Positions 1-17,886 of a stretch of 33,025 nucleotides of DNA are shown here, piece by piece. This DNA is from Spiribacter vilamensis (lineage in GTDB: Bacteria; Pseudomonadota; Gammaproteobacteria; Nitrococcales; Nitrococcaceae): positions 2,027,501-2,060,525 of the forward strand of contig NZ_SHLI01000001.1 of assembly GCF_004217415.1 (NCBI RefSeq). The letters are read 5' to 3'. Under the pieces are notes generated by a model, which did no database searches, had not been told where the DNA came from, and saw nothing but the letters and a program-made list of their open reading frames with translations. A program made the translations under genes and the position numbers. Numbering within the stretch: the first letter of the stretch is position 1; every line of letters starts with the position of its first letter.

Positions 1-1822
<1,822 letters not shown>

Positions 1823-1920
1823 ATATAACCCCAAGAGGGCTATAGGACATTGGTCCTGCATGCCATCGACAATGTTTCTGACGCTAGTGGCACCGTGAAA
1901 AGTGCCATTGGTAACCGGTT

Positions 1921-2039
1921 TGCCTGGCGAAAATAGCGCGTGGGAACCACCCGAACCCATTCCGAACTCGGAAGTGAAACCGCGTAGCGCCGATGATAGT
2001 GCCGCCACGCTGTGGTGCGAAAGTAGGTCATCGCCAGGC
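1921..2039 (+). rRNA. 5S ribosomal RNA
   Basis: A 119-base segment begins tgcctggcg and ends cgccaggc, so its termini pair to form helix I. The internal block acccgaacccattccgaac and the later gtaggtcatcgcc are typical of gammaproteobacterial 5S rRNA. It follows 23S by about 100 bases and precedes a strong terminator, the normal 23S-5S order. Exact ends are good to one or two bases. Confidence 0.95.
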
Positions 2040-2052
2040 GCTTACAACGAAG

Positions 2053-2089
2053 CCCCTGTCAGTCTCCGGACTGGCGGGGGTTTTTTTTT
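2053..2089 (+). terminator. Rho-independent terminator of the rRNA operon
   Basis: The arm cccctgtcagt (2053-2063) pairs over 11 bp, with two G-T wobbles, with actggcggggg (2070-2080) around a 6-base loop. Nine T residues follow directly (2081-2089). It sits 14 bases after 5S rRNA and ends the rRNA transcript before birA. Confidence 0.93.
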
Positions 2090-2123
2090 GCATAATCCAT
2101 CCATGAATATCGAGGGGAAGTCG

Positions 2124-3640: not shown

Positions 3641-3697
3641 GCCTCGCGGATTGCTCCGTCACGGCAGGTTGGGTACCCTTCAGTCTCTTATCTCAAA

Positions 3698-3773
3698 GCT
3701 GGCGTAGCTCAGTCGGTAGAGCAGCTGATTTGTAATCAGCCGGTCGGGGGTTCGAATCCTCTCGCCAGCTCCA
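3698..3773 (+). tRNA. tRNA-Thr (anticodon UGU)
   Basis: A 76-base cloverleaf with acceptor stem gctggcg (3698-3704) pairing cgccagc (3763-3769), discriminator T and an encoded CCA (3771-3773). The anticodon stem-loop is gctga-tttgtaa-tcagc with anticodon tgt at 3731-3733, and the T-arm carries ggttcgaatcc. It corresponds by identity and position to E. coli thrU, which is followed directly by tyrU. Here 28.7 kb of other genes come first. Confidence 0.97.
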
Positions 3774-3819
3774 TATGAAACAGTAGGTTGCGTTCTCTTG
3801 AGCAGTCCCCTCTTAGTTC

Positions 3820-3904
3820 GGGGCTAGATTGGGGCTACGGACGTGACAATCCAGGCGGTTTAGCAACGGCCCGCTCGGTTGTTTCCCAGTAGCCCCTAAG
3901 CCCC
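3820..3904. repeat. Short inverted repeats flanking the tRNA-Thr 3' side
   Basis: Two copies of ggggcta[g/c] (3820-3827 and 3831-3838) face gtagcccc (3889-3896) and a nearby taagcccc. ggggctac and gtagcccc are perfect 8-bp inverted repeats about 50 bases apart. They lie in the non-coding stretch between the tRNA and the first accessory gene, where integrase arm sites or a terminator could be expected. No T-run follows the arm, so a terminator is not clearly supported. Function unknown. Confidence 0.35.
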
Positions 3905-3991
3905 AGTATTTTTCTGCCCGGTTATTCCTGTTTGAAGGTTCTACGCTTTGCAGCCGAAAGACCATCGAACAGGGGTGTGGGCATGGCCCGT

Positions 3992-4933
3992 CTACTCCTC
4001 CGAGAAGTAATCGGTGTCGATCCGGTGCATCCGATATTCCCCCGCAGCAGAAACTCCTACGCCTTGATCGACCATCAGCTTGGCCAGTCGTTGACCGTCG
4101 ATCAACACGATGCTCGCATCGATGGCTTGCGTGAACTTACGCGCCTCGGCAGTGAAATCGGCGGTCGTTAGAAATACTCCCTTGCGTGCTAGCTGACCTT
4201 GCAGTGCGCCGGCGAATTTCTGGATCTCTGGTCGCCCGATGGTCGCTGCCCAGCGTTTCGCTTGAACGTAAACCACATCAAGTCCTAGTGGATCTTCGGC
4301 GATTGTTCCGTCGATACCCTCGTCACCGCTCCGGCCGACCGAGTGTGCCGCATCAGCTCGGTTGCCGCCGTACCCGAGCCCAACTAAGACCTCCACCACC
4401 AGTTGTTCAAAGAATGCGGGGGAGACGGTTTTGGTCTGCTCCAGAAACTCCGCCTCGATACTGGCGCGATGCCGTCGCCAGGCATCCTCCATCTCTTCGT
4501 CGGGCGTCGCTGCTGTATGGGCTTTATTAACCGTAGCCCTAGTCGCCGGGCTGTCGGCGCTATCCTGTATCTCGTCAGAGTGTTTACGTGTCCGGCTTCG
4601 GAAGTCCCGGAAAGAAGGGTAACGCTCCAGTGTGTCGGCAACGATGGCGTCAGGTTTTTCTTGTAGTAAACCTCGTCCCACGTCGGAAATCTGAAATAGC
4701 CCGCGCTTTGGCGAGGTCAGCAGTCCGGCTTGTCGTAAATAGGTCAGGGCCCAAGCTACGCGATTGTGTAGAAGCGGCTGTTTTCCACTGGGCAGCATTT
4801 CGTGCTGATCAGCCTCGGAGAGTTCAAATTGCTGGGCCATGGCCTCATAGGCATCGCGTGTGCGATGCGGTTCGCCATCAGCAGCGAGTTGCAGCAGCGG
4901 TAACAAGCAAGCTTCGTAGCGGGGTATAGCCAT
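3992..4933 (-). CDS. Mrr-like type IV restriction endonuclease
   Basis: Mrr-family enzymes cleave foreign methylated DNA in the cytoplasm. The 313-aa product (E. coli Mrr is 304 aa) has an N-terminal winged-helix domain like Mrr_N (about residues 1-95), a polar linker (110-165) and a PD-(D/E)xK-type Mrr_cat domain (170-290). In that domain I see FEQLVVEVLVGLGYGG, GRSGDEGIDG with the predicted metal-binding D208, and VYVQAKRW, where Q224-x-K226 replaces ExK as is usual in this family. The catalytic residues look intact. ATG 4933 is the first start and has only a weak ribosome site. It is transcribed toward tRNA-Thr and stands alone. The m6A methyltransferase 2.7 kb away suggests its target preference must avoid that mark. 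Confidence 0.88.
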   Translation of the reverse strand: MAIPRYEACLLPLLQLAADGEPHRTRDAYEAMAQQFELSEADQHEMLPSGKQPLLHNRVAWALTYLRQAGLLTSPKRGLFQISDVGRGLLQEKPDAIVADTLERYPSFRDFRSRTRKHSDEIQDSADSPATRATVNKAHTAATPDEEMEDAWRRHRASIEAEFLEQTKTVSPAFFEQLVVEVLVGLGYGGNRADAAHSVGRSGDEGIDGTIAEDPLGLDVVYVQAKRWAATIGRPEIQKFAGALQGQLARKGVFLTTADFTAEARKFTQAIDASIVLIDGQRLAKLMVDQGVGVSAAGEYRMHRIDTDYFSEE

Positions 4934-5395
4934 CGGGGTCTCTCACGTCCCTGTGTCGTCACAAGTCTAAAGGCCTGTGGAGATTTTCGTGTGTGAGCCG
5001 CTCCATTGATCTCAGGCTTCAAGGATAAATCGGTCGCCGAGCTGGATTGCGAACGGTGTCTTGGCAGCATGCCACTGGATCGATAGGCGCTTGCACTTGG
5101 CCGGAACGTCCCGCAGCGCCACGTGGCTCAGGTTGACCGCGCCTCGTCGCGCAGGGAGTGCCTCTGCTTCGAACCACCTTTCACGCATCCATGTCTAGCG
5201 GGTCGATAGTATAGGTGGTCTAGATAGTTTTCTGCTCCTCCGGCGGCAGGTGGAGGCGATATAACCTCAAACGAGGCTAGACCGGATTGCCTGGCCACGC
5301 TAGCGTTAGCCGATAGTGTTGCTCAGTTATATCCGTCTGGTAGAAGTTAAGGCAAACTGCGTCCACCGCATCAAAGAACACGGTCCTGAGCGGGC
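4934..5395. other. 462-bp gap between divergent genes
   Basis: No recognised gene. The right half (about 5189-5395) is AT-richer and has no coding look. The left half holds the possible 58-codon minus-strand frame described separately. Promoters for the Mrr-like gene (minus) and the 289-aa gene (plus) must lie here, but I cannot point to convincing -35/-10 pairs. Confidence 0.5.
5012..5188 (-). CDS. Possible small ORF or gene remnant, 58 aa, unknown
   Basis: A 58-codon frame starts at ATG 5188 and stops with TGA at 5014-5012. The predicted peptide (starting MRERWFEAEALPARRG, ending LGDRFILEA) has balanced composition and GC-rich third positions like a true coding region. A TAG lies three codons upstream in frame and no ribosome site is visible. 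It may therefore be the surviving end of a decayed larger gene rather than a working small gene. I do not recognise the family. Confidence 0.3.
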   Translation of the reverse strand: MRERWFEAEALPARRGAVNLSHVALRDVPAKCKRLSIQWHAAKTPFAIQLGDRFILEA

Positions 5396-6265
5396 ATGAC
5401 TGAAATCAACGGGCCTCGGCGATGCCTACGGCAATTCATTGATGCGCAGTGCTTTACACGGACAGTAAATGTTACGAAGTTAGAGTTTATTCGCATGCCT
5501 CCACTACACAAATGGGAAATTACAGTTTCATCTGGGTCATACTTCCCTCATCTCGCCCAGAATTTTCCTGGGGATGACATTAGCCTCAGCGACGAAGACG
5601 AAGAAGAACAGGGTATAGCGTTTTACGCTTACTCGCGCCATGTAGACGAGCTAGATACCCCTGCTGGTGCAGCCCAGAGAATTTACAGTCTCCAGTTGTT
5701 ATTAAACGGAGCCTTAAGGCTAGAGTGGGAGGGGGTCCACACGCACTCCGTCCGCTTTAACACGTTCGGACGAATCGGTAGCGGCGAAATAAACTCTGTT
5801 TACGCAAGAAGCATTGAAGAAAATCCATTCAGCGAAAGCTCAGTAATAGATGAAGGCTTGGGCTATTGTAAAAACCCGAAAGTTAAATTTTCGGCTCACT
5901 TGCTGTACCTAGCAAAAACTGATGAAGACTTGCGTACCCTTCTATTCCTTGTTGGTTTGGTGTCGACGGAGTCACCAATTGAAAGCATTCTTACTTGGAA
6001 CACCTTATACAGGATCGTTGACACAGTAAAAAATAATGCTAAATATTTAAACTGTTCTCTCGAAGAGTTTGCCGATAAAAATAAGATTAAGGCGTTTAAG
6101 GCAGCATGTAACAATATGAGCATAATTGGCTTAAATGCGAGACATGGTGCTGCGAATAATGAACCACCACCCCAGGTTATTACGGATCTCGACGAGGCCA
6201 TCAATCTGATTATTCCAATGGCTACCAAATTTTGCCAATTTTATGTCCAGGCAAGACACCCTTGA
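5396..6265 (+). CDS. Hypothetical protein, 289 aa, ARHG-containing C-terminus
   Basis: I cannot assign a function. The protein is soluble, with no signal peptide or membrane segment. The N-terminal half is beta-rich and acidic (DISLSDEDEEEQG, about residues 61-73). The C-terminal half looks helical and carries ESILTWNTLYRIVDTVK and then the segment NMSIIGLNARHG, about residues 240-251, followed by a final helix. An R-H pair in such a helical domain recalls HEPN-type RNases (R-x4-6-H) of defence loci, but the spacing here is R-H with no intervening residues, so the link is weak. Codon use is clearly AT-richer than birA or the mrp genes, a sign of transfer. ATG 5396 is the most upstream start; ATG 5494 is an alternative. 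Confidence 0.7.
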   Translation: MTEINGPRRCLRQFIDAQCFTRTVNVTKLEFIRMPPLHKWEITVSSGSYFPHLAQNFPGDDISLSDEDEEEQGIAFYAYSRHVDELDTPAGAAQRIYSLQLLLNGALRLEWEGVHTHSVRFNTFGRIGSGEINSVYARSIEENPFSESSVIDEGLGYCKNPKVKFSAHLLYLAKTDEDLRTLLFLVGLVSTESPIESILTWNTLYRIVDTVKNNAKYLNCSLEEFADKNKIKAFKAACNNMSIIGLNARHGAANNEPPPQVITDLDEAINLIIPMATKFCQFYVQARHP

Positions 6266-6366
6266 CCGTGCAGCGCCGTTTTAACCAGTAGGGTCCTTAT
6301 GATTGCGAATTGACACACAGGAAGGTGTGAACCGTCCTTATGCGATGAAAAACTAAACTACGGAGC

Positions 6367-6756
6367 ATGATTGATTTAATGAAAAATGGAACAATTCTCG
6401 CCTTGAGCTTGGTCTTGTCGGCATGCGCCGACACTGCGAGCAGGCTCAACGATATGAGTATAGGCATGTCGAAACCAGAAGTAGTTGAACTTCTAGGGCA
6501 ACCTAAAGAGACGAAAGCGGCGAGTGGCGTTGAGTACATGATGTATGAACTACGTGATGCGCCGGGTGCCGCGACTCAGACAGGCTGTGGTGTGGCAGGC
6601 GTTTATACGATCGGGTTAGCGTATGCTTTTGAGGGCTGCCAATACGAAGACGAATTATATTTCGTACGTTTAATCGAGGGAAACGTTGAGGCTTACGGAA
6701 GGCAAGGAGATTTTGATTCAACGAAAGATCCCACTATCAACATAAATACTAACTAA
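6367..6756 (+). CDS. Small lipoprotein with a BamE/SmpA-like fold signature
   Basis: The 129-aa product begins with a short positive segment and a hydrophobic stretch ending in the lipobox LSAC, so it should be lipidated and membrane-anchored. Residues about 30-50 (NDMSIGMSKPEVVELLGQP) match the GMs..eV..lLG.P motif of the SmpA/OmlA/BamE-like fold common in small outer-membrane lipoproteins. It is not the core BamE itself. Two cysteines and a low-complexity tail (DPTININTN) follow. Two starts are possible: ATG 6367 lies only one base after ggag, and ATG 6379 lies 13 bases after it. The gene is AT-rich like the upstream unknown, so the two may have arrived together. Confidence 0.7.
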   Translation: MIDLMKNGTILALSLVLSACADTASRLNDMSIGMSKPEVVELLGQPKETKAASGVEYMMYELRDAPGAATQTGCGVAGVYTIGLAYAFEGCQYEDELYFVRLIEGNVEAYGRQGDFDSTKDPTININTN

Positions 6757-7237
6757 TGATCGAGAGGAGCGTATTTGACGAGCTGTAGAAAAGACGTATT
6801 GATATGAGACTAGTGAGCCACAGAAGATCTTTGATTTGGTTGGTCTAGTGGTAGTCGACAGGCAGTAAACGGCGAACATGAGGACATCGCGGACCCTTTT
6901 GTTCGTGATTAGTATTGAGGTGAGGCATGCGCCGTGAAATTCGGCCAGCGATTGTTCGTTCCACAGTGCTCACTAAGGTATTTCAGAGAAAAATTCCTAA
7001 AAACTGAAGTTGCATTGCATTAAGCCGACCAAGTGCTCCATGCAATTTTCGTAAGCATCACGGCATACTGACCGCATCCGACGTGGAATTAGATCGGCTT
7101 GTTGTCTTGTCGCGTTGCTTTGGCAATCACTGATGTGATGTGCTCACTGCCGTATACAGCCTAGTCGGTAGGATAGCCTCCTTACTAGGGATCGTAAGGC
7201 ACTACCGGCGTATCTAGACGTTTTGTGACGGACTGAA
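6757..7237. other. Non-coding, AT-richer stretch with no assignable gene
   Basis: No open frame of useful length on either strand has a start, a ribosome site and a coding look. One stretch (about 6930-7020, plus strand, reading VKFGQRLFVPQCSLRYF) is open for some 30 codons and then stops; I do not recognise it. The segment reads like degraded accessory DNA leading into the transposase relic. Confidence 0.5.
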
Positions 7238-7486
7238 ATGCTCTTAACGCTACCCGAACCCGAACGCCATCTCTTCCGGGCCGCAGACATCCTGAGCCGT
7301 AAGATGGATACCTCGGAACTCAAGTAAGACATCTTCTGGATGTTGTTCGTGGAGTACTGATCGGACATTTTCGATGCGCGCCGTGAGCAGATCCAGCGAC
7401 TAAAGGATCAGCTTTACGGGCGATTTGGTGCTAAATAGAGCAACCCTGAACAAGGCTGTGGTAGTGGCTGTGGTGGAGAGGGATAG
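7238..7486 (+). pseudogene. Relic of an IS66-type transposase N-terminus (TnpC-like)
   Basis: One frame from ATG 7238 to 7486 stays recognisable across three in-frame stops (TAA 7325, TGA 7358, TAG 7436). The last part reads DARREQIQRLKDQLYGRFGAK, stop, SNPEQ. This resembles the coiled-coil N-terminus of IS66 TnpC proteins (..iE.LK.qLyGr.SEK.DPEQ). The catalytic domain is gone and I see no IS66 ends. It is non-functional DNA just upstream of the restriction-like cassette. Confidence 0.4.
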
Positions 7487-7548
7487 AACACTGCGGTTAT
7501 TCATGCTCACAGATACACAGGGGTAATGTTCCTCCCTTCTATCTCCGC

Positions 7549-7617
7549 GGACGCAAATGGCACTCTAGACTCACGCTTTCGGGGCAAAACAACCAACGCA
7601 GGACGCAAAATGGCACT
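7549..7617 (+). repeat. Direct repeat at the start of the methyltransferase gene
   Basis: ggacgcaaatggcact (7549-7564) and ggacgcaaaatggcact (7601-7617) differ by one inserted A and lie 52 bases apart. The second copy contains the ATG chosen for the methyltransferase. The first copy would place an ATG (7557) in a different frame. The sequence between (ctagactcacgctttcggggc) resembles common REP-like dispersed elements. The repeat may be a duplication scar or an operator. Confidence 0.45.
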
Positions 7618-10351
7618 GAATCGCGGACAGTTAATAGAACAATTCAGGCACGCGGTGGAGCAATCGGCTACTGAGGCGGGTCGTGAGGAATTCATCTATG
7701 CCTTGCTGCACGCACTCGATCGGCCAAAGGCAACGATTACCAAGTTGCGCAACGGTGATCCGACAATTAATGTCGCAAACCGCTCTAATGCTCTAGCGGT
7801 CCGGCAGAGCTTTTACTTTGAGCGGGTGAATGATGGCAGCGATGTGCATGATGTGCTCGATGCGCGGATCGCGGACCCAAAGGTTGTCGCGGGCCGTAGC
7901 GACGACCCCCGTGTGGTTATCGTCACCGACTTCGAGAGCATCACGGCCTGGGATGTGCGAAAACAAGAGCGCATGGAGGCGACTTTTGCGGAGCTCGATC
8001 GTCACTACGGGTTCTTTCTGCCAATCTATGGCCGGGGCTACGAGCAGGTTGAGGACTTTCGCGAGCTAGAAGCGGACGTCAAGGCCGCGCGTAAACTCGG
8101 GCACCTTTTCGATGAGCTCCGTGAGGCGAACCCCGTTGAAACAGCGGCAGACACTCATGCGCTTAACATCTTCCTGACACGGCTGCTCTTTTGCTTTTTC
8201 GCTGAGGATACCCGGATTTTCGGTGATAACCAGTTCTCGAAACTGGTGGCAGACCACACTGCGAAGGACGGCTCAGACCTGAGCGCCACAATCCAAGGTG
8301 CGTTCGACATGATGGATGTCCGGGATGGCGATCCGGAGCGGGCCAAAGCACCGAAACATTTAGCGGATTTCCGTTACGTCAACGGTGGGCTTTTCGAGGA
8401 GCGTGTTCCGGCTCCGGCTGTCTTTACCGCGAAGGCCCGGCGCATCCTGCTCGACTGCGGAGGTCTGAACTGGCGTGAGATCAACCCGGATATTTTTGGG
8501 TCGATGTTCCAGGCTGTGGTCGAAGAGGAACAGCGCTCCAGCCTTGGACAGCACTACACTAGCGTGCCGAACATCATGAAGGTAATCGCGCCGCTATTCC
8601 TTGATACGCTCCGTGATGACCTCGAGGCTGCACGTGGGAGCGTTAAGAAACTCGAGGCTCTGCTCACCCGCCTGCACCACATCAAGATATTGGATCCAGC
8701 CTGTGGTTCCGGCAACTTCCTTATCATTGCCTACAAGGAGCTGCGGCGCATCGAGATGGATGTGCTCGAAGCGCTGCAATCGGCGCGAGGGGAGCAAGCA
8801 AACGGCAGCATCGAGTCCATCATGGTCGGTAGTACCGGCATACGGCTTTCGCAGTTCTACGGTATCGAGATTGACGACTTCGCCCACAAGGTTGCGATGC
8901 TCTCGCTGTGGATCGCTGAACATCAGGCCAATCAGGCTTTCGAAGAGCGTTTTGGTTCGGTGACCTCGCCGCTGCCGCTGAAAGCTGGGGGTAATATTGT
9001 CTGCGATAACGCGCTGCAGAGAGATTGGGAAAGTGTCTGTCCGCATGAGCGACAAGATGAAGTGTATTTGATTGGTAACCCACCTTTCCGCGGAAGAGGT
9101 AAGCGCTCCGAAGAACAGCTTTCGGATATGACCCACGTTTTCCATAACTTCAAAAAATTTAAAGAACTAGACTTGTCTGGCTGCTGGTTTTTCAAGGGGG
9201 CGCATTACATTAAAAATACGGATGCTCAACTATCATTTGTTACCACTAATTCTATTAACCAAGGCATTCAAGTTGCTATCCTCTGGCCACCGATCCTGCG
9301 GTTCGGAGTAAAGATTCGATTCGCCTATCAAGGGTTCAAATGGAGTAATAGTGCTCGTGACCAAGCTGGTGTGCACGTTTCAGTCATTGGCCTCACGGCA
9401 AAATCAGATCCGGTCCGCCGCCTCTTCAGCTCTGAATCTGGTTCATTGCAAGAAGTCCGACCTTCCAATATCAGCCCTTACCTGCTGTCAGCGGGCAACA
9501 CAGTGGTAGCTGACCGTCGTCAACCTTTAACTGAATTAAAGCCTATGTTGCTCGGCAGCATGGCCAAAGATGGCGGTCATCTGATGATAACCGCAGAAGA
9601 GAGGTCAAAACTTCTGAATGAGGAACCAAACGCCGATCGCTGGGTTCGTCGTATAGTTGGGGCAGAAGAGTTTCTCAAAGGTAAGCAAAGGTGGTGTCTC
9701 TGGCTTGTTGGTGCGTCAGCGGCCGAATTAAGCTCAGTACCGTTCATTCGGCAACGCGTAGAGGGCGTTAGAGAAAAAAGACTAACGGAGAAGTCGACTC
9801 TAAACATTGCAGAAACCCCGCATCTCTTCGCGCAGATCGCTCACCCCGAGGGTGATTATATCCTCGTCCCCCGCGTCACTTCTGAGCGCCGTCAATATGC
9901 CCCAATTGGTTTCTTTGGATCTGATGTCATTGCTACTGACTTGGTCTACATCATCCCCCTTGGCACCATCTATGACTTTGGCATCCTCCAAACTCGAATG
10001 CACATGCTCTGGCTCCAAACGGTGGGCGGCCGCCTGAAGTCTGACTTCCGCTACTCCAATACCCTTGTCTACAACACCTTTCCATGGCCCGAGCCAACGG
10101 CGGCGCAACGCGAGTCCATCGAGCAGCGAGCCCAAGATGTCCTCGATACGCGGGCGCTGTATCCAGCTAAAACCATGAGCGAGCTCTACGATCCGGATAA
10201 GATGCCGGCCGATCTTCTCGCGGCTCATCGAGCGCTAGATCTGGCGGTGGAACAGGCTTATCGCTCTACGCTATTTCGTAACGACAACGAGCGCCTAGAG
10301 TACCTATTCAAGCGCTACGAGACACTGATTGCCAAGGAGGCCCAGGCATGA
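7610..10351 (+). CDS. MmeI-like DNA (adenine-N6) methyltransferase, nuclease domain not visible
   Basis: Predicted to methylate adenine in a specific DNA site. The 913-aa protein follows the MmeI-type (type IIL) order. The N-terminal region (1-120) lacks the D...ExK nuclease motif of MmeI. Next comes a helical spacer (VIVTDFESITAWDV, then ALNIFLTRLLFCFFAEDTRIF). The SAM motif I is DPACGSGNF starting at residue 362, with YGIEIDDFA beyond it. The catalytic motif IV is NPPF at 490-493. A target-recognition region and a C-terminal helical tail follow. ATG 7610 is preferred over 7526 because aggac lies six bases upstream, and the 28 extra residues look like translated repeat DNA. The stop overlaps the helicase start (ATGA), so the methylase, helicase and GIY-YIG protein probably act together. 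Confidence 0.87.
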   Translation: MALNRGQLIEQFRHAVEQSATEAGREEFIYALLHALDRPKATITKLRNGDPTINVANRSNALAVRQSFYFERVNDGSDVHDVLDARIADPKVVAGRSDDPRVVIVTDFESITAWDVRKQERMEATFAELDRHYGFFLPIYGRGYEQVEDFRELEADVKAARKLGHLFDELREANPVETAADTHALNIFLTRLLFCFFAEDTRIFGDNQFSKLVADHTAKDGSDLSATIQGAFDMMDVRDGDPERAKAPKHLADFRYVNGGLFEERVPAPAVFTAKARRILLDCGGLNWREINPDIFGSMFQAVVEEEQRSSLGQHYTSVPNIMKVIAPLFLDTLRDDLEAARGSVKKLEALLTRLHHIKILDPACGSGNFLIIAYKELRRIEMDVLEALQSARGEQANGSIESIMVGSTGIRLSQFYGIEIDDFAHKVAMLSLWIAEHQANQAFEERFGSVTSPLPLKAGGNIVCDNALQRDWESVCPHERQDEVYLIGNPPFRGRGKRSEEQLSDMTHVFHNFKKFKELDLSGCWFFKGAHYIKNTDAQLSFVTTNSINQGIQVAILWPPILRFGVKIRFAYQGFKWSNSARDQAGVHVSVIGLTAKSDPVRRLFSSESGSLQEVRPSNISPYLLSAGNTVVADRRQPLTELKPMLLGSMAKDGGHLMITAEERSKLLNEEPNADRWVRRIVGAEEFLKGKQRWCLWLVGASAAELSSVPFIRQRVEGVREKRLTEKSTLNIAETPHLFAQIAHPEGDYILVPRVTSERRQYAPIGFFGSDVIATDLVYIIPLGTIYDFGILQTRMHMLWLQTVGGRLKSDFRYSNTLVYNTFPWPEPTAAQRESIEQRAQDVLDTRALYPAKTMSELYDPDKMPADLLAAHRALDLAVEQAYRSTLFRNDNERLEYLFKRYETLIAKEAQA

Positions 10352-12492
10352 GCGCCGATTCAACGGATATTGTCATCCCTTATAAGCAGACAGGGGCGAG
10401 CACTCTGTCCGACGGCATGGGGATGCGCGAGATGCAGGCAATGGCCTACGAGCATCGCAACGCGCCCTACCTGTTGCTGAAGTCTCCTCCGGCCTCGGGC
10501 AAGAGCCGGGCGCTCATGTACCTCGCACTCCACAAGCTGAACCAGCAGGGCTGCCAGAAGGCGATCATTGCCGTGCCCGAGCGCTCGATTGGGTCATCGT
10601 TCCAGTCCACCAAACTTACCGACGGTGGCTTTTTCTACGACTGGCACGTCGAGGGACGTAACAATCTCTGCGGGACCGGCGAGGATGCGGGAAAGGGCAA
10701 GATTGAAGCGTTTCAGCGCTTTCTCGATTCTGATGACCACACGCTCGTGTGTACGCACGCGACCTTCCGCTTCGCCGTCCAGGAGATCGGCGACATGAAC
10801 CGGTTCCAGGACACGGTGATCGGTATTGATGAATTCCACCACGTCTCTGTTGACGAGGAGAACAAGCTAGGTGAGGTCATCGACCGGGTCATGGCCGGTT
10901 CCAACGCTCACATCATCGCCATGACAGGTTCGTACTTCCGAGGCGACGGGGTCAGCATTCTTGAGAAAGAGGAAGAGGATAAGTTCGAGACTGTCACCTA
11001 TACCTACTACGACCAGCTCAACGGGTATCGGTATCTGAAGTCCATCGGCATTGGCTATCACTTCTATGAAGGCGACTATCTGAGCGCCCTCGACGATGCG
11101 CTTGATACGCACAAGAAAACGATCATCCATATCCCTAACGTCAACTCCTCCGAGTCGGTGGGAAAGCATGAGGAGGTTGACCGGATTCTCGATCAAATCG
11201 GCGTGGTCGGTGAGCGCATTGGCAATGCGAATATCAACCGGGTAACCACGCCAGATGGACGATCACTGCTTGTTGCCAACCTTGTTGATGACACAAAGGA
11301 GGCTCGCGACGCGACGGTCCACTACCTCCAGAACATCACCGACCGCGATGACATGGACATCATTATTGCGCTTGGCATGGCCAAGGAGGGCTTTGACTGG
11401 CCCTGGTGTGAGCATGTCCTCACGATTGGCTATCGGCAGTCACTCACGGAGGTGGTGCAGATCATCGGGCGTGCAACGCGTGATGTTGAGGGTAAGAAGC
11501 ACGCGCAGTTCACGAACCTCATCGCCATGCCCGAGGGCGCAGACGATGATCGTAAGAAGGCTGTGAACACGCTTTTGAAGGCGATCACCGCCTCACTGCT
11601 CATGGAGCAAATTCTCGCGCCGACCATCAAATTCAAACCCCGCTCCCGGATCAAGCCCGAACAGTCCGTTCCCAGTGATACGCGGATCATTGAGGACAAC
11701 GATGCGCCGGTCTCTACTCGTTGTGCAGACATCCTCGAAGGGGGCGTTACCGAATACATCGCGGATATCGCGGCGACACCGGGCGGAGTCAAGTCGATTG
11801 GGGGAGAGCCTGATCAAGCAAATCTCTTGCGCGAGGAGGACATCAAACTCGTCCTCCGTCGGCGCGAGCCGGATCTCCCGGACGAAGAGGTCGATTTGCT
11901 TGCCAATGAGATACACATTGGGCTTGCAGCGCAGGCCGAGGGTGGCCTGGTAGATGGCGAAGATCTCCCAGAAGACGCCGAGATCATGCGCCCCCCGAAT
12001 GAGGGAGGGCACGCAGAGCAAGACAATATGTCGTCGTCGGAGCCGTCTGAACCATCAAACGACGCGACCGAAGGTCAGACCAAGGCCAAAATGGTTACTC
12101 GCTACGAGATCGAAAATCCCGATACGACCGGCCAAACCGGTGACCCCAAGCGGGCGGGGGAGAAGTTCATGAAAGTCGGTCGGCGATTCATTAATATCAA
12201 TGATGTGAACCTGGATATGATCTCGCACATCAATCCGTTCGCCCGGGGTGAGGAAATTCTCTCCAAGCACCTCACCCCGGAGCGGCTCTCGCGGGTAAAG
12301 GACGCCCTGACCATGCCGCGTAACGATGTAACCGAGGAAGAGGCCGTCATCCTCCTCCCGCGGCTGAAAGAGTTTTTCGAGGAAAAAGGCCGGCCCCCCA
12401 AGCTCGATGCAAACGATCCCTACGAGCAACGTCTCGCACGGGTCAAGCAGTACGCTGAAGCTTATGCCAAGAACAAGCGCACCAGCTCATAG
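10348..12492 (+). CDS. SF2 DExH-type helicase/translocase of the methylase-GIY-YIG cassette
   Basis: Likely an ATP-driven DNA translocase. The 714-aa protein has Walker A SPPASGKS (46-53), motif II as DEFHH (161-165), motif III-like MTGS (192-195) and motif VI QIIGRATR (371-378), so both RecA lobes are complete in the first 430 residues. A long acidic, poorly ordered region follows (about 460-600). The C-terminus is a small helical module (670-706, EFFEEKGRPP...YEQRLARV) that recurs near the N-terminus of the next protein. I see no nuclease motif. Translation begins at ATG 10348, within the methylase stop, behind a perfect aaggagg. The gene resembles a type I or III restriction translocase subunit separated from its nuclease. 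Confidence 0.87.
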   Translation: MSADSTDIVIPYKQTGASTLSDGMGMREMQAMAYEHRNAPYLLLKSPPASGKSRALMYLALHKLNQQGCQKAIIAVPERSIGSSFQSTKLTDGGFFYDWHVEGRNNLCGTGEDAGKGKIEAFQRFLDSDDHTLVCTHATFRFAVQEIGDMNRFQDTVIGIDEFHHVSVDEENKLGEVIDRVMAGSNAHIIAMTGSYFRGDGVSILEKEEEDKFETVTYTYYDQLNGYRYLKSIGIGYHFYEGDYLSALDDALDTHKKTIIHIPNVNSSESVGKHEEVDRILDQIGVVGERIGNANINRVTTPDGRSLLVANLVDDTKEARDATVHYLQNITDRDDMDIIIALGMAKEGFDWPWCEHVLTIGYRQSLTEVVQIIGRATRDVEGKKHAQFTNLIAMPEGADDDRKKAVNTLLKAITASLLMEQILAPTIKFKPRSRIKPEQSVPSDTRIIEDNDAPVSTRCADILEGGVTEYIADIAATPGGVKSIGGEPDQANLLREEDIKLVLRRREPDLPDEEVDLLANEIHIGLAAQAEGGLVDGEDLPEDAEIMRPPNEGGHAEQDNMSSSEPSEPSNDATEGQTKAKMVTRYEIENPDTTGQTGDPKRAGEKFMKVGRRFININDVNLDMISHINPFARGEEILSKHLTPERLSRVKDALTMPRNDVTEEEAVILLPRLKEFFEEKGRPPKLDANDPYEQRLARVKQYAEAYAKNKRTSS

Positions 12493-12507
12493 TAAGAGGG
12501 CGACGCA

Positions 12508-13833
12508 ATGAGCAGCGAACGGCGCACACTCGATGATCTGCTCGACGAACTCCCACCGGGGCTGCTCGATGAGGAAAAGATCGCCAACACGTCCAGAGCC
12601 ACCCGTGGCAGTCGGCATGCGTTTTTCGATCGTATCAACGCCTTTATTGATGAGCATGGCCGGGAGCCAAATGCCAATGCGCCGCCCGGCACCGAGGAGC
12701 GCTCCCTGGGATTGAACCTCACCGGCGCGCGGCGCGATCCGACGCTCGCGCAAGAGTTGGAAGACGCGGATCGCCACAGGTTGCTACGCCAGCGCGTAGA
12801 CGAAAGCACCCAAGAGTCAGTTCAGCGCCCAAATTCTGAGGCCACGGCGTCATCCTCTGCGGATGAGTCGCAGAACAAGGCCCCAACAGGAGCGGCATCG
12901 CTTGACGATATGCTCGCCGACGAGGCGTTCATGGGCCTTCTCGACACGGAATCCGATGCTGATGATGTATTCGATATGATTCACGTCGAAGGCATTGATC
13001 GGACCCGTACAGCGCCTGACGAGATTGCCGAACGGCAGCCTTGCGAGGATTTCGAGTTCTTTGAGCCACTGTTCGAGCGCATGCGACAGCGTGTCGCAGA
13101 AAGGGTGGCGACAGTGGAGCCCTTTCATCGGGAAGGGCAGATCGAGGTGGGGGATTACTTCTACCTTCGTGGGCAGATGTGCCTGGTCGATGCCATCGAG
13201 GATACCGATGTCCGTGAGGCCGGTGAGTCCGTCTACCGAGTCCGTGTGGTCTTCGATAACGGCACCGAGATGAAACCCTATAAGCACTCGCTTGGGCGAG
13301 CGCTTCTCGGGCAGAAATCCCGGGGCTATGAGCGGGGCCAGCGCATCCTCGACCCCGATATTGTGGCTGACCACTTCAACGGCATCACCCACCGGGATCA
13401 ATCAAGGGGATTTATCTACGTTCTGCGCTCGAAACGCCAAGATGCGGTGATCCGAGAGCAGCGCGATCTTTACAAAGTCGGACTGACCGCACGAACGATC
13501 GAGGACCGCCTGAAGGGCGCTGAGCGGCAGACGACCTACCTAGAGGGGCCTGTCGAGCTCATCGCCGAGTGGGAAATCTATGGGGCGAATCTCCGCCGTG
13601 TAGAACGCATCCTCCACGCTTTCCTCGCCCCCCGCCGTGCGCAATTCACGCTCATCGATGCTAATGGCAAGCAATACCACCCGCGTGAATGGTTTAACGT
13701 GCCTTTCGAGACGATCAAACAGGCCGCCGAGGCCATCATGAATGGCACCTTGATGAGCTACCGCCTGAACGCGAGTACGGGCGAGCTATATCGTGCAGAC
13801 CAAGGCCAACGCCTTGACGACCGGGAGGTATAG
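12508..13833 (+). CDS. T5orf172-type GIY-YIG nuclease of the cassette
   Basis: Predicted DNA nuclease, 441 aa. The C-terminal domain (about 300-400) carries GFIYVL (301-306) as the GIY element, LYKVGLT (321-327) as the YIG element, R334 in EDRLKGA, E366 in VERILH as the likely metal ligand and REWF near 394-397, as in the T5orf172 branch. The N-terminal 290 residues are unlike a nuclease: a LDDLLDE..GLLDEE motif (8-23), a helical module with FIDEHGREP (46-54), a second LDDMLADE..GLLDTE copy (132-148) and a beta-rich segment (205-265). ATG 12508 follows the helicase stop by 15 bases with agaggg as ribosome site. It probably supplies the cutting activity that the methylase lacks. Confidence 0.85.
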   Translation: MSSERRTLDDLLDELPPGLLDEEKIANTSRATRGSRHAFFDRINAFIDEHGREPNANAPPGTEERSLGLNLTGARRDPTLAQELEDADRHRLLRQRVDESTQESVQRPNSEATASSSADESQNKAPTGAASLDDMLADEAFMGLLDTESDADDVFDMIHVEGIDRTRTAPDEIAERQPCEDFEFFEPLFERMRQRVAERVATVEPFHREGQIEVGDYFYLRGQMCLVDAIEDTDVREAGESVYRVRVVFDNGTEMKPYKHSLGRALLGQKSRGYERGQRILDPDIVADHFNGITHRDQSRGFIYVLRSKRQDAVIREQRDLYKVGLTARTIEDRLKGAERQTTYLEGPVELIAEWEIYGANLRRVERILHAFLAPRRAQFTLIDANGKQYHPREWFNVPFETIKQAAEAIMNGTLMSYRLNASTGELYRADQGQRLDDREV

Positions 13834-13874
13834 CGCGTTTTGAAATTCGCTACTGCACTTAGGAGGCAAAGCGC

Positions 13875-13973
13875 ATGTGTGATTATGTAATTGCGCACAT
13901 TAGTGTGTTTTTCATCGCTGTTTATGTAGATGTAGAAACTTCAGCACGCGGACGTTCGTATAGCGTCGCCTAA
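13875..13973 (+). CDS. Possible 32-aa ORF translationally coupled to parA
   Basis: A perfect aggagg (13861-13866) stands eight bases before ATG 13875. The frame encodes 32 residues with a hydrophobic core (IAHISVFFIAVYVDV) and stops with TAA that overlaps the parA start as TAATG (13971-13975). The strong ribosome site and the overlap suggest a short coupled reading frame, either a leader or a remnant of a gene that preceded parA. No family is recognisable. It starts 41 bases after the GIY-YIG stop, so it could also be the last frame of that operon. Confidence 0.4.
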   Translation: MCDYVIAHISVFFIAVYVDVETSARGRSYSVA

Positions 13974-14491
13974 TGACACCTGTAATCGCCCTGACCTCAC
14001 CGAAGGGCGGAGCAGGAAAGACAACCCTCGCGTCGCACCTCGGTCACTCGCTGCAACACCGAGGGCAAAGCGTGCTCCTGATTGATGCCGATCCTCAGGA
14101 GAGTTTGTTGTCATGATCCGAGGAACCCGATGTTAGCCACCCGTCCAGCATTGGCCTGCATCAGCCAAAGCAGCCCGCGAGAGAAGCCGGGACAATGGGA
14201 ACAAACTACGACTGCGTGGTCATCGACTCCCGGGGCAGTCTCAGCGGGACGATCCCTGCAGCGCTCAGAGTCGCAGACCTGATTCTGACCCCCATCCAAG
14301 CCTCTCCACTCGACGTGCGGGCGAATGCGGATCTCGTCGATGTTGTTCAGGCCTGTCAAAAGATCACCGATGGGCGCGTAAGCTTCAACTCAGTCCATGA
14401 TGTTACAAGAATCATGCCGACGCACCCGCGTTTCACAACATCCTGGAAGTGCGACACTTTAGTGCAGGTGAATCGTCGTGCAGGAGAGTAG
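13973..14491 (+). pseudogene. parA: ParA/Soj-like ATPase, broken by a stop and a 3' truncation
   Basis: ParA proteins segregate plasmids or integrated elements. The frame begins MTPVIALTSPKGGAGKTTLA, with an intact deviant Walker A, and continues to VLLIDADPQ. TGA at 14114-14116 stands where relatives have the Trp of the S-L-x-W-S segment. The same frame then resumes with SEEPDVSHPSSIGLHQP, TNYDCVVIDSRG (Walker B region) and ADLILTPIQASPLDVRAN. ParA similarity ends near 14378 (QACQKITDGRV) and unrelated sequence runs to the TAG at 14491. The gene is therefore doubly damaged. No partner parB or origin is visible. It is a sign that a plasmid or integrative element once lay here. Confidence 0.8.
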
Positions 14492-14603
14492 CCGAAGAAA
14501 AATGCAAACAAATCCGACGGAAGGGATCGGGTCTGCGGTAACCTGAGACTCCACATAAATTCCCTCTATCTCGCAGTCCTGACCCCTGACTAATCACCTG
14601 GTA

Positions 14604-15262
14604 TTAGCCACCCTTCATGCGGCGAGCCACTCCTATGCCTGCCAGACCTAGACCAAGGAGCCAGACTGTTGCCGGAACGGGGACCTTGGTCCATTCGCCG
14701 CTACGACCTGATGCCCAACCGTAATCCCCGAGGCTTAAATAATCCCCGGCGATACCACTGTAGTAATCGGGAGGGCCGTCCGCCACGTCAATATTCCAGT
14801 GAGTAATGTTCTTATTAGAATCGAAAACGATATTAGTAGCGCTATACACCGTTGGTCTCGTGATCGGAACGTAACTGGTGGTGTATTCCGCAACCCCGGG
14901 TGGTAGGAAATAGCATGACGAGTCATACCATGATGCACAAGCAGCGCTAGCAGAAAACGATCCGCTAGGACTCTCGACAGAAGTTGTAGCGGACCAGCCG
15001 TTAACGTCGGAAAAAATATTTACCGTTGCATTAGTGAGCTCTCCACCGGGCAAATCTGATTCGTCGATTGATAAAAGCTAGTACTCCCCATGAGTTCTGG
15101 ATTGCACCAATACTCAGAACCGCATGATTCTGGATATTGACCGTCAAAATAAAGAGGCGCGCCCTGATATTCATAGGACACGATGGAAGCATAAGCCAAA
15201 CCGGAAAATGGGGACAATAATAAAATCATTAATCCCAATTTAAGCATGTGTTTTTCTCTCAT
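14604..15262 (-). pseudogene. PEP-CTERM sorting-domain protein, frameshifted
   Basis: PEP-CTERM proteins are exported, processed by an exosortase and usually linked to extracellular polysaccharide. The start is at 15262, behind aggga, with a signal peptide ending GLAYA. The frame runs to GSTSF and then shifts. One added T in the run at 15073-15076 (minus strand) would join it to LLSIDESDLPGGELTNATV in the other frame, which continues to the end. That end has the sorting signal VPVPATVWLLGLGLAGIGVARR followed by a basic tail. As written, the protein would end early at 15020. The T-run slip could be a real mutation, phase variation or a sequencing error. A sigma-54-type promoter lies upstream, and no exosortase gene is in the window. 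Confidence 0.8.
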
Positions 15263-15559
15263 TTTTTATCCCTGCATTGATGCTTCGACTGTTTTACAGG
15301 CTGCCCCTAATACCGGCAGATTGGTAACGTGGTTCAAGCGCTGGGAAACCATTGGTTGAGCGATTCCCCAATTCCTGATGTTGCAAGCTACAAAGTACGT
15401 GCAAAAACGATGCCACTATTAGCACCGTACCTGTTTTCCCCTACTTCAGACGGTATTTTTGGACGCTTTCAGGAAATCGCTCGTGGACTGTAAAATTTCA
15501 CGACAGTTTTCAGAGACCGAGTCGGCATTTTGTGCGCCACTCCATCGGACCAACTAGGT
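15263..15559. other. Upstream region of the frameshifted PEP-CTERM gene
   Basis: About 300 bases without a gene. It holds the sigma-54-type promoter described separately. Further upstream (toward 15500) are small inverted repeats such as actgt...acagt (about 15488-15509) that could be activator sites, though this is weak. It ends at the left inverted repeat of the IS3 remnant. Confidence 0.4.
15400..15415 (-). promoter_or_regulatory. Sigma-54-type (-24/-12) promoter of PEP-CTERM gene 1
   Basis: The minus strand reads TGGCATCGTTTTTGCA, with GG and GC separated by exactly 10 bases and ending TTGCA, as in the consensus TGGCAC-N5-TTGCW. It lies 138 bases before the start at 15262. An almost identical element precedes the second PEP-CTERM gene at 24049-24064, which makes chance unlikely. 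Confidence 0.7.
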
Positions 15560-15613
15560 GATCTTTCCCACCTGCAGCGGACACTTTCGTAAGTTGTAAA
15601 CCAGGGGTGGATC

Positions 15614-15943
15614 ATGGCAACAGCAGCCAACGGCGTGTCCAAGCGCAAGCAGTCCCGCTACAGCGCGAAATATCGTTCCGAGGCCTTTTCGCTCGCCGAA
15701 CGTATCGGCGTTGCCGCCGCAGCTAGCGAGCTCGGCCTGCATGCGACGCAGATTTACCAGTGGCGCGCGAAAGCGGCCCACGAGAAGTTCGTCGGTGACC
15801 GCGAGCGCCAGCTTCGCGAGGAAAACGCCCGGCTCAAACGCCAGCTCGCCGAGAAGACCGAATTTGCACCCGCAAGGTCATTGGTTGGTCGACCAGCCAC
15901 CGGATCGATGCTGATCTCGCATGCGCAGCGCCTCGCGGCGTAA
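15614..15943 (+). pseudogene. IS3 OrfA, 3'-truncated and fused out of frame to OrfB sequence
   Basis: The first 80 or so residues are a complete OrfA helix-turn-helix: YSAKYRSEAFSLAERIG, then ASELGLHATQIYQWR, followed by the leucine-zipper-like ENARLKRQLAEK. Shortly after (near 15865) the similarity ends, and the frame reads through OrfB DNA in the wrong frame until TAA at 15943. The start ATG 15614 follows a weak ggtgg. Any product would bind DNA but lack the catalytic partner, so it might act as a repressor of related copies, which is speculation. Confidence 0.7.
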
Positions 15944-16200
15944 TCATGCATACGGATCGAGGCAGTGTTTACTGCGGCTGGCAGCATCGGAGCCTAATCC
16001 GCCGTCACGGACTGATTGCCAGCATTAGCGGCCGGAGCAACTGCTACGACAATGGTGTGGTGGAGAGCCGTTAATGCATCCGGAACCACTCCGCCAACGG
16101 CTTTTCGAAACCATCGAGATCGAGAAGAACCGGACCCGTCCCTATTCTGCCCTCAAATACATCAGCCCTGACGTGTTCGAGGCATCGATAGCGACTCAAT
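15871..16200 (+). pseudogene. IS3 OrfB (integrase-type transposase), C-terminal fragments
   Basis: The frame from 15871 reads RKVIGWSTSHRIDADLACAA, then IMHTDRGSVY, RRHGLIASISGRSNCYDNGVVES, and stops at TAA 16072. This covers the end of the DDE core, with the second D in HTDRGS and the third acidic residue (E) in VVES. A further block in another frame (about 16108-16185) reads ETIEIEKNRTRPYSALKYISPDVFE, the usual OrfB tail. So there is an internal deletion after DLACAA, a stop or frameshift after VVES, and no start codon. Confidence 0.72.
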
Positions 16201-16257
16201 CGAGTGTCCACTGTTACTGGGCAAGATCGAGCGGTATGCCGTCTTCGTTGACCCTGA

Positions 16258-17886
16258 TCAGTCTGATTGGCTCGCCTTATCGGCGGTGTCCGGCGAACCC
16301 GACGCCGGCCGTCGCTGACCGATGGCGCGATGTGCGAGAGGATTGAGACCCGAGGCAAGGCTCCGAAGCATCGCTTCCACCGCGACCAGCAGATCACCCT
16401 CCGGGACCGCGGGCCGCACCCGAATGACCTTGTCCAGCCTCCAGGCCAGGGCCGCCAGCGCCAGACCTGCCACCACGGGCCAGGCACCGTTGCGTAGTGT
16501 GTCCGTCCCCATCACATAGGCCATGGGCCGCGGATCGTAGGTACTCCAGAGTACCCAGGGTACCGTTAAGGCGGCGAGTCCAATGGTCGCCACAGTCAGG
16601 CCCATTACGCGCGTGCCCTCTCCTGCGGCATCCCTGGAGGGCGCGTTGACCAACAAGAACAGGTAGCGCATCAGGACGCATGTCGTGGTGACGCCCGTCG
16701 CTGTCACCACCCATGCCAACGCCGACGGGAACACCGGCTTGATCGCGGCCTTCGCCAGCCCGCCACCAGTCATTGGCCAACCCGCCACCGAGGCGCAAAG
16801 CATTGCCACCAGGGCGAGGGCCATCCAGCGGGCGGAGCCCCGGAGCAGCGGAATCCAGCCTACCGCTAAAAACAGTGCGCCTTTGGCTAGTCCGTGGTGG
16901 ATGCCGTAATAGCCCGCCGTCTCGACACTCGGGTCGCCGGCCGCCAGCAGCCCGGCGCCCACCACCGCGAGGATCAGACCCATCTGACTGACCGTGGAGT
17001 AGGCCAGCACCGCTTTGATGCGCTGCTGCAGCACCCCGATGACCGCACCCGCATAAACGCCGATCAACCCCAGCACCAGCAGCAGCGCAGCGGCTATAGT
17101 GCCACCCTCCGGCAGGAACCGAATCAGGCCGATGAGCCCCGCGTTGACAATGGCGCCGGAGAGCACCGCCGAGGCGGCGACGGGGGCTGCCGGGTGCGCC
17201 AACGGCAGCCACACATGCAGTGGCATGAGCCCGGTCTTGATGCCGAACCCGATCACCAGCATGGCCACAGTGACATGGCTCTGCCCGTTACCCATGCCCG
17301 GATCCATGAGCCCGTCGCGCATGTCCGCGATCAAAAAGGTCTCCGCCTGGGCCATCATGAGAATAAAGCCCGTAAGCAGCATAGCCTCGCCGATCACCGC
17401 CATGATGATGTACACACTCGAGGCCCGCAGGGCCTCAGCGGTTCGGCTATGCACTACCAGGAAATACGACGCCAGTGACACCGCGGCGAAGGCGACATAA
17501 AAAGTGACCGCGTCCGCGGCCAGGTACACCCCCAGGTTGCCGGCGAGGGTGAGACACCAGAACCCGCTGAAGATCGCGGGTTTGCGGGGCGCCTTCATGT
17601 GCGCCAGCGCATAAAGGCCGGCCGCGAGCCATAGGGCAGCGGTCATGCCCAGCAGCCCCATACCGAGCGGCTCGGTCTCCAGCCGAACGCCCAGCAACAG
17701 GCCTGGTACCTCGGTAGGCTGATCGGAGAGCGGCATCAGCGCGAGTGCCAGGGCCGGCAGGGGCGCCAGGGGGAGCAGCATCAACGCGCGGTCCCGAACC
17801 GGCGGTAGCGCCATTAGCCCGCCCAGCAGCAGCGGCCAGGCCAGGGCCACAAAGGGTAGGACGGGGCCTTCCAGCAAAATGCTCAT
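16258..17886 (-). CDS. Mrp-type antiporter, third NuoL/M/N-like subunit (MrpD'')
   Basis: The 542-aa membrane protein has the proton-antiporter core of NuoL/M/N and Mrp subunits, with about 14 hydrophobic segments. It keeps GFGIKTGLMPLHVWLPLAHP with the buried lysine of the family and RIKAVLAYSTVSQMG with a second one. Family members move protons or sodium ions across the inner membrane. It differs from MrpD in having SAVLSGAIVNAGL where MrpA-type proteins have a histidine-rich helix. ATG 17886 overlaps the preceding stop (ATGA). The longer upstream frame runs antisense-like through the previous gene and is not used. It is the last gene of the operon; its stop is 30 bases from the IS3 right end. 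Confidence 0.85.
   Translation of the reverse strand: MSILLEGPVLPFVALAWPLLLGGLMALPPVRDRALMLLPLAPLPALALALMPLSDQPTEVPGLLLGVRLETEPLGMGLLGMTAALWLAAGLYALAHMKAPRKPAIFSGFWCLTLAGNLGVYLAADAVTFYVAFAAVSLASYFLVVHSRTAEALRASSVYIIMAVIGEAMLLTGFILMMAQAETFLIADMRDGLMDPGMGNGQSHVTVAMLVIGFGIKTGLMPLHVWLPLAHPAAPVAASAVLSGAIVNAGLIGLIRFLPEGGTIAAALLLVLGLIGVYAGAVIGVLQQRIKAVLAYSTVSQMGLILAVVGAGLLAAGDPSVETAGYYGIHHGLAKGALFLAVGWIPLLRGSARWMALALVAMLCASVAGWPMTGGGLAKAAIKPVFPSALAWVVTATGVTTTCVLMRYLFLLVNAPSRDAAGEGTRVMGLTVATIGLAALTVPWVLWSTYDPRPMAYVMGTDTLRNGAWPVVAGLALAALAWRLDKVIRVRPAVPEGDLLVAVEAMLRSLASGLNPLAHRAIGQRRPASGSPDTADKASQSD

What the first reader, a model, noticed from the sequence alone, without database searches (positions are those of the whole stretch)
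7610..13833. Three-gene methylase-helicase-GIY-YIG cassette: candidate novel restriction/anti-phage system
An MmeI-like adenine methyltransferase without a visible nuclease motif, an SF2 DExH translocase and a T5orf172-type GIY-YIG protein are coupled in that order (ATGA overlap, then a 15-base gap with a ribosome site). Type IIL enzymes such as MmeI carry nuclease and methylase in one chain, and type ISP enzymes carry nuclease, helicase and methylase in one. Here the three activities are on three proteins and the nuclease is GIY-YIG rather than PD-(D/E)xK. The cassette sits between an Mrr gene and mobile relics, a typical defence-island setting. I infer a dissected restriction-modification system that translocates before cutting. 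I cannot tell without a search whether it has been described.
Basis: partly seen in the sequence, partly recalled or inferred. Interest (0 to 1): 0.8.

Follow-up and report, generated by a model that had tools for sequence, protein, structure and literature searches.

The report
Known three-gene split restriction-modification system
Three neighbouring bacterial genes, a DNA-tagging enzyme, a DNA motor and a DNA cutter, form a probable restriction system of a kind already described in print; the new detail is a small protein module, seen almost only in this system in the genomes searched, that may tie the motor to the cutter.

Summary
Window 7610-13833 holds an MmeI-type adenine methyltransferase (M) whose nuclease site is lost, an SF2 helicase (H) and a T5orf172/GIY-YIG nuclease (G), tightly coupled. 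All three recur in the same order in 61 of 66 related loci. In 398 Pseudomonadota genomes H occurs in 23, G in 24 (all 23 included), and M lies on the same contig in 22 of the 23. The set is already described: the S4 Fig C legend of Blow et al. 2016 defines OspHL35III, 'several hundred members in REBASE', in these terms, and B. subtilis dnmA-yeeB-yeeC has the same gene order. Restriction is unproven: no effect was seen in B. subtilis; protection in Vibrio crassostreae is reported second-hand. Best reading: a type I-like, ATP-dependent system in which M recognises the site and licenses H-G. New here: a ~58-aa module at the G N-terminus, related to the H C-terminus, a separate 75-89-aa ORF in some Bacteroidota, and confined to this system in 398 genomes apart from one weak stop-containing match.

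The parts
7610..10351 (+). M: MmeI-type N6-adenine DNA methyltransferase with target recognition domain, nuclease site lost (913 aa from ATG 7610; ORF open from 7526)
   Evidence: Pfam MmeI_N/hel/Mtase/TRD/C; MmeI 5hr4 E 5e-191; PADLOC REase_MTase_IIG E 3e-297
7637..8125 (+). N-terminal pseudo-nuclease domain (MmeI_N region without the catalytic Lys; many cassette rows share a PKxTIxxLRxG-like stretch instead)
   Evidence: boundaries; catalytic Lys 0 of 68 cassette rows against 8 of 8 stand-alone
8624..9427 (+). methyltransferase domain (DPACGSGNF, NPP)
   Evidence: 51-55 of 55 rows per motif column
9494..10093 (+). target recognition domain
10348..12492 (+). H: SF2 DExH helicase/translocase, 714 aa
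   Evidence: Pfam DEAD and Helicase_C; ResIII in 42 of 47 homologues at E <= 0.1; model pLDDT 71.9, Foldseek to SF2 proteins
12343..12465 (+). copy of the shared module at the C-terminus of H (about residues 666-706)
   Evidence: hhalign 95%, P 2e-8 against the G segment; 49 of 60 H rows, window included, match at E <= 0.01
12508..13833 (+). G: T5orf172/MUG113-type GIY-YIG nuclease, 441 aa
   Evidence: conserved active site; model pLDDT 81.5, pTM 0.49
12613..12789 (+). system-specific helical module at the N-terminus of G (residues 36-94)
13408..13737 (+). GIY-YIG/T5orf172 catalytic domain (residues 301-410)
   Evidence: Foldseek to phage and viral T5orf172 proteins
3992..4933 (-). context: Mrr-type (type IV) restriction gene
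3698..3773 (+). context: tRNA-Thr at the edge of the low-GC stretch
13973..14491 (+). context: broken ParA-like gene (below Pfam cut-off)
15614..16074 (+). context: transposase relic (HTH_Tnp_1)

Best explanation
A member of the OspHL35III / DnmA-YeeB-YeeC kind: a three-subunit, type I-like restriction-modification system. M binds a short asymmetric site through its single recognition domain and methylates one adenine on one strand (published for B. subtilis DnmA, inferred here). At an unmethylated site M, whose own nuclease domain is dead, serves as the specificity subunit that loads H and G; H hydrolyses ATP and moves along the DNA, and G makes the cut (all inferred). H and G are probably held together by the helical module that both carry (inferred from sequence). 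Shown: domains, conserved active sites, loss of the M nuclease, near-strict co-occurrence in Pseudomonadota, purifying selection, module distribution. Not shown: methylation, translocation, cutting or phage protection by this locus.
For: Match, feature by feature, to the published description of OspHL35III. Co-occurrence: H 23, G 24, overlap 23, M on the same contig in 22 of the 23, of 398 genomes; 61 of 66 loci with all three, all 61 in the same order and strand. Catalytic Lys of the M nuclease: 8 of 8 stand-alone, 0 of 68 cassette rows. Active-site residues of H and G conserved across phyla. Purifying selection: pN 0.14-0.23 against pS 0.75-0.92 to L002 and L003, dS saturated. Defence and mobile settings: genes annotated like Zorya (name recalled) next door on pZA1001, TIR and Abi-type genes on the Nitrosococcus plasmid, Mrr here, H matches in 263 plasmid records. 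PMC9973331 reports that deletion of dnmA or yeeB homologues in V. crassostreae raised sensitivity to some phages (passages read; the source, Piel et al., not held). Viable dnmA deletion in B. subtilis fits a nuclease that needs M.
Against: In B. subtilis, deletions did not change infection by three phages, plasmid transformation was unchanged, and the DnmA site is not avoided in phage genomes; PMC9973331 concludes a non-functional relic, PMC7261158 an inactive, inefficient or non-canonical system. The viable dnmA deletion fits an inactive nuclease equally well. M is not always there: of 8 Bacteroidota regions fetched around H, 6 have a near full-length M, one only a fragment (L133/L163), and one has no M match within about 14 kb upstream of H and G (L128/L162). 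I saw no biochemical cleavage by any member. Sequence matches of H to solved restriction motors are weak (LlaBIII E 0.077) and Foldseek lists generic SF2 proteins. I had no B. subtilis sequence in hand; the link to YeeB/YeeC rests on published domain statements and on the B. subtilis control genome ringing for MmeI_C (1 of 14 controls) and T5orf172 (2 of 14).
Confidence: 0.7

Rival explanations
1. Relic: only M is active, as an orphan methyltransferase that tunes gene expression, and H-G are decaying passengers.
For: The published conclusion for B. subtilis (PMC9973331).
Against: Active sites of H and G are conserved, H keeps 49% mean column identity over 47 rows, pN is far below pS for all three genes, and none of the 23 H genomes of 398 lacked G.
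Confidence: 0.13
2. BREX/DISARM-like exclusion: methylation marks self, but H and G block phage DNA without cutting.
For: M shows partial similarity to DrmMI and PglX; DISARM and BREX also pair a methyltransferase with helicases (recalled).
Against: G has conserved GIY-YIG catalytic residues in all 49 rows; PADLOC matched H and G to no DISARM or BREX model at E <= 0.01. Flanks were scanned only in part.
Confidence: 0.1
3. H-G is a self-standing, modification-dependent or damage-dependent nuclease, merely transferred together with M.
For: In 13 of 64 M-H pairs, besides the broken copies L051 and L064, more than 300 bases separate M from H, up to 4 kb; about 7 kb in two sampled genomes; one Bacteroidota region has H and G with no M match within about 14 kb upstream.
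Against: Matched M, H and G distances, 4-base ATGA overlap of M and H in 17 of 64 pairs, and loss of the M nuclease in all 68 cassette rows but in none of the 8 stand-alone ones.
Confidence: 0.07

Closest known systems
OspHL35III (REBASE; Blow et al. 2016, PMC4752239, S4 Fig C legend, passages read)
   Same: Three proteins: MmeI-like methylase/specificity without N-terminal nuclease motif, separate translocase, separate GIY-YIG endonuclease; described as prototype of several hundred members.
   Different: No difference at the level of the legend; its sequence was not in hand, so no alignment was made.
DnmA(YeeA)-YeeB-YeeC of Bacillus subtilis (PMC7261158, PMC9973331, passages read)
   Same: Same order and domain assignments, MmeI-like M lacking the nuclease motif; m6A at GACGAG shown for DnmA.
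   Different: Reported inactive in restriction; PMC9973331 says B. subtilis YeeB and YeeC lack stretches present in the Vibrio homologues. Not aligned here.
MmeI and stand-alone type IIL enzymes
   Same: All MmeI domains; 5hr4 E 5e-191.
   Different: 8 of 8 scorable stand-alone proteins carry D-x9-ExK in the same chain; here it is lost and the nuclease is on another protein.
Type ISP (LlaGI, LlaBIII)
   Same: Methyltransferase, single recognition domain, SF2 motor and nuclease; translocation-collision as a model mechanism (PMC5737866 passage).
   Different: One chain and Mrr-like nuclease there (PMC3874165 passage); three chains and GIY-YIG here; H matches LlaBIII only at E 0.077.
CglI (R.CglI + H.CglI, PMC5737866 passages)
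   Same: Separate nuclease and SF2 ATPase subunits in one ATP-dependent complex; precedent for a split translocating restriction enzyme.
   Different: PLD nuclease with its own B3-like DNA-binding domain; the nuclease-ATPase complex itself binds the site.

Membership tests
OspHL35III / DnmA-YeeB-YeeC kind | MmeI-like methyltransferase/specificity protein | tested here: met
OspHL35III / DnmA-YeeB-YeeC kind | N-terminal endonuclease motif absent | tested here: met
OspHL35III / DnmA-YeeB-YeeC kind | separate translocase (SF2) gene next to it | tested here: met
   motor activity itself not tested
OspHL35III / DnmA-YeeB-YeeC kind | separate GIY-YIG endonuclease gene | tested here: met
   cutting itself not tested
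OspHL35III / DnmA-YeeB-YeeC kind | order M, helicase, GIY-YIG on one strand (stated for B. subtilis) | tested here: met
OspHL35III / DnmA-YeeB-YeeC kind | direct sequence homology to the named prototypes | tested here: inconclusive
   B. subtilis control genome rings for MmeI_C and T5orf172; prototype sequences not in hand
OspHL35III / DnmA-YeeB-YeeC kind | m6A on one strand of a short asymmetric motif | not testable with these tools
   needs a methylome
Type IIL (MmeI) | PD-(D/E)xK nuclease in the same chain | tested here: not met
Type ISP | nuclease, motor, methylase and TRD in one chain | tested here: not met
Type I | HsdR/HsdM/HsdS subunits | tested here: not met
   no HsdS or HsdR nuclease family in the Pfam scan of the three proteins; the works-like claim is unaffected
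DISARM | DrmA helicase, DrmB (DUF1998), DrmC (recalled) | tested here: not met
   only partial DrmMI similarity of M; none for H, G or three neighbours

The most novel reading that the evidence does not exclude
The ~58-aa helical module is a dedicated assembly domain of this system: the copy on G and the copy on H (or the free 75-89-aa protein in some Bacteroidota) bind each other or a common partner, possibly the dead nuclease domain of M, so that the GIY-YIG cutter is delivered only to a motor that M has licensed. This would make the family one switchable restriction machine rather than a loose gene cluster.
Probability: 0.35. Interest if true: 0.5.

Novelty: new member of a known kind. Interest (0 to 1): 0.33.

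Why it matters
The kind is known, but in what I could read nobody shows that it restricts by cutting; the best studied member (B. subtilis) is reported inactive and another (Vibrio) protective. The near-strict co-occurrence in Pseudomonadota, the loss of the M nuclease in cassettes but not in stand-alone enzymes, and the system-specific module give testable reasons to think the three proteins work as one enzyme. H relatives are widespread: 263 plasmid records (of five plasmid regions read, four show all three genes and the fifth H and G near the record's start), and a DNA match to H in 99 of 5426 E. coli genomes (partial coverage; one region read, with the whole cassette). PADLOC-DB 2.0.0 scores M as a type IIG enzyme and has only weak matches for H and G, so such surveys may miss the system (inference).

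Tried and rejected
Considered and rejected: an independent type IIL enzyme beside unrelated genes (nuclease lost; co-occurrence); DISARM, type I and type ISP membership. A relaxed D-x8-13-E-x-K search found strings in 6 of 56 full-length cassette M proteins; those of L015 and L061 lie near the right place but, for L015 and L061 as aligned, do not fall on the catalytic columns, an alignment which could shift by a residue there. The module model did not hit M (0 of 55 at E <= 0.01). Pfam gave no confident family for the module; PMBR is a weak lead (12 of 49 G proteins at E <= 0.1, best 0.008). Foldseek of H against the PDB gave generic SF2 proteins; of G against the PDB nothing at E <= 0.001, with weak EF-P/eIF5A and Tudor-like hits that may concern its middle domain. 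No direct or inverted repeats of 18 bases or more were listed in 1-17000. Paper searches: for the system, 25 for the Vibrio study. I saw no mention of the shared module or of the split small gene in the passages read, which is not proof of absence. Morgan 2009, Makarova 2011 and Piel 2022 could not be read and are cited through other papers.

Full report
Observation. M runs from the likely start ATG 7610 (the frame is open from 7526; the two closest relatives have ORFs of 912 and 920 aa against 913 from 7610) to 10351, H from 10348 to 12492 with a 4-base ATGA overlap, G from 12508 to 13833 after 15 bases with AGAGGG. M carries all five MmeI Pfam domains and matches MmeI itself (5hr4) at E 5e-191, but that alignment starts only at residue 104 of the 941-aa frame. 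H has Helicase_C and, just under the cut-off, DEAD; ResIII matches 42 of 47 homologues at E <= 0.1. G has T5orf172 and MUG113.

Nuclease loss in M. A search of 398 Pseudomonadota genomes with M matched 44. Eight MmeI-type proteins far from any H, with the N-terminus in hand, all carry D-x9-ExK, and none of 22 full-length cassette proteins in that script does (window and three named loci included). A ninth stand-alone protein (L093) was cut at the locus start, and weaker M matches without a locus were not scored. In an alignment of the eight with 68 cassette proteins (55 from the window and the genome-contig loci, 13 others; 8 further full-length cassette proteins were not entered), the catalytic Lys column is K in 8 of 8 and 0 of 68, the Glu column E in 8 of 8 and 3 of 68, the Asp column D in 8 of 8 and 22 of 68. 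Many cassette rows show a PKxTIxxLRxG-like stretch in this domain, so the fold may be kept for another use (inference).

Co-occurrence. A scan of genome contigs with peptides of H gave 66 loci from Gamma-, Beta- and Alphaproteobacteria, Desulfovibrio, Bacteroidota, Akkermansia and Conexibacter. M was found in 64 of 66, G in 63, all three in 61, and all 61 in the same order and strand. Of the five exceptions, four end at a contig edge (L025, L042, L053, L060); L064 looks disrupted. These loci were found through H, so the sample is biased. The fairer test is the genome sample: H in 23 of 398, G in 24 of 398 including all 23, M on the same contig in 22 of the 23; in G195 (no M) and G168 (no M, no H) the genes lie near a contig start. 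In two genomes M lies about 7 kb from H. In Bacteroidota H was found in 9 of 395 genomes at E <= 1e-40, the genome of L029 included. Of the 8 other regions, 6 have a near full-length M, one a fragment only (L133/L163) and one no M match within about 14 kb upstream of H (L128/L162): the link to M is looser there. Pairwise distances of M, H and G agree (Mantel r 0.91, 0.95 and 0.91 over 49 loci, 0 of 2000 permutations as high), and non-synonymous change is far below synonymous (pN 0.14-0.23 against pS 0.75-0.92, two relatives, dS saturated).

Setting. In E. coli ECCHD184 the genes are annotated as methyltransferase, DEAD/DEAH helicase and GIY-YIG nuclease. Matches to H occur in 263 of 72,556 plasmid records, 128 with one place covering 80% or more, in 99 of 5,426 E. 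coli genomes by DNA similarity (partial coverage only), and in 2 of 50,697 phage records, both partial. Genes annotated like Zorya (name recalled) follow the cassette on Zymomonas pZA1001. The slot between M and H often takes in other genes: in 15 of 64 pairs the gap exceeds 300 bases, two of which (L051, L064) look like broken copies. Pfam names for inserts include RhuM (L058, L105, L129), Schlafen/AlbA (L040, L126; also just upstream of H in L128), KAP NTPase (L063), a PD-(D/E)XK protein (L106), and, below cut-off, Abi/HEPN (L045) and ParE (L029). Recalled, not looked up: type I operons take in RhuM and similar genes in the same way.

A module particular to this system. Profile comparison joined the C-terminus of H with the N-terminus of G (41 columns, probability 95%, P 2e-8). 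A model of the G segment matches 52 of 60 G rows (its source), 49 of 60 H rows and 0 of 55 M rows at E <= 0.01. The 8 G rows without it are the Bacteroidota loci L024, L026-L030, L032 and L042, in which a separate ORF of 75-80 codons between H and G carries it; L033, whose G ORF is short and was left out of the 60, has the same ORF, though the script picked a wrong frame there. The 11 H rows without a match are these nine loci with L003 and L057. In a further Bacteroidota genome (L129) an 89-aa ORF matches at E 1.3e-11 and G lacks the module, while the other seven regions fetched have it fused to G. Against 398 Pseudomonadota genomes the module profile hits 24, exactly those with G: 24 places in G, 3 in H tails, and 1 weak match (E 5e-4) in a frame with two stops. 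The predicted structure of G gives helices at 34-50, 63-76 and 78-83, with pLDDT 95-97 over residues 41-90. That the module joins H to G is an inference.

What is known. [quoted passage not shown] PMC7261158 and PMC9973331 (passages read) describe DnmA-YeeB-YeeC: m6A at GACGAG, conserved gene order, defence-gene neighbourhoods, but no effect on transformation or on three phages; PMC9973331 also reports that homologue deletions in V. crassostreae raised sensitivity to some phages. That Vibrio study and Morgan et al. 2009 were not held. The finding is therefore a new member of a known kind. PADLOC-DB 2.0.0 scores M as type IIG (E 3e-297); its best matches for H and G are partial and weak (PbeA 1.5e-7, PDC-S57 3.5e-5).

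Mechanism. Most likely M is the specificity and modification subunit, H an ATP-driven motor and G the cutter, as in type I and type ISP enzymes or the split CglI enzyme (PMC5737866 passages). Viability of a dnmA deletion in B. subtilis fits a nuclease that needs M, but fits an inactive nuclease equally. No step has been shown for this locus. Models: H pLDDT 71.9, pTM 0.60, low confidence at 543-625; G pLDDT 81.5, pTM 0.49.

Verdict. Real, conserved and probably a working restriction system, already described in outline; interest 0.33, resting mainly on the module and on the co-occurrence.

Noticed in passing
window 13973-14491: ParA-like ATPase broken into two frames just downstream of the cassette: perhaps the island came from a plasmid or integrative element.
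   Followed up: partly
window 14604-15262 (minus): A PEP-CTERM protein that appears split into two frames.
   Followed up: no
window 5396-6265: 289-aa protein with no Pfam, PADLOC or NCBIfam match at E <= 0.01, between Mrr and the cassette.
   Followed up: partly
L040, L045, L058, L063, L105, L106, L126, L129, between M and H: The M-H gap is a recurrent slot for other genes (RhuM, Schlafen/AlbA, weak Abi/HEPN, KAP, PD-(D/E)XK).
   Followed up: partly
L128 and L162 (G636): H and G with a Schlafen/AlbA gene before them and no M match within about 14 kb upstream: an H-G pair that may work without M, or with an M elsewhere.
   Followed up: partly
plasmid hits H68, H73: H homologues annotated as 'pseudomurein-binding repeat-containing', and PMBR weakly matches the G module: perhaps a misannotation caused by the shared module.
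   Followed up: partly
L112 (Zymomonas pZA1001) 5093-17986: Cassette directly followed by genes annotated like Zorya.
   Followed up: no
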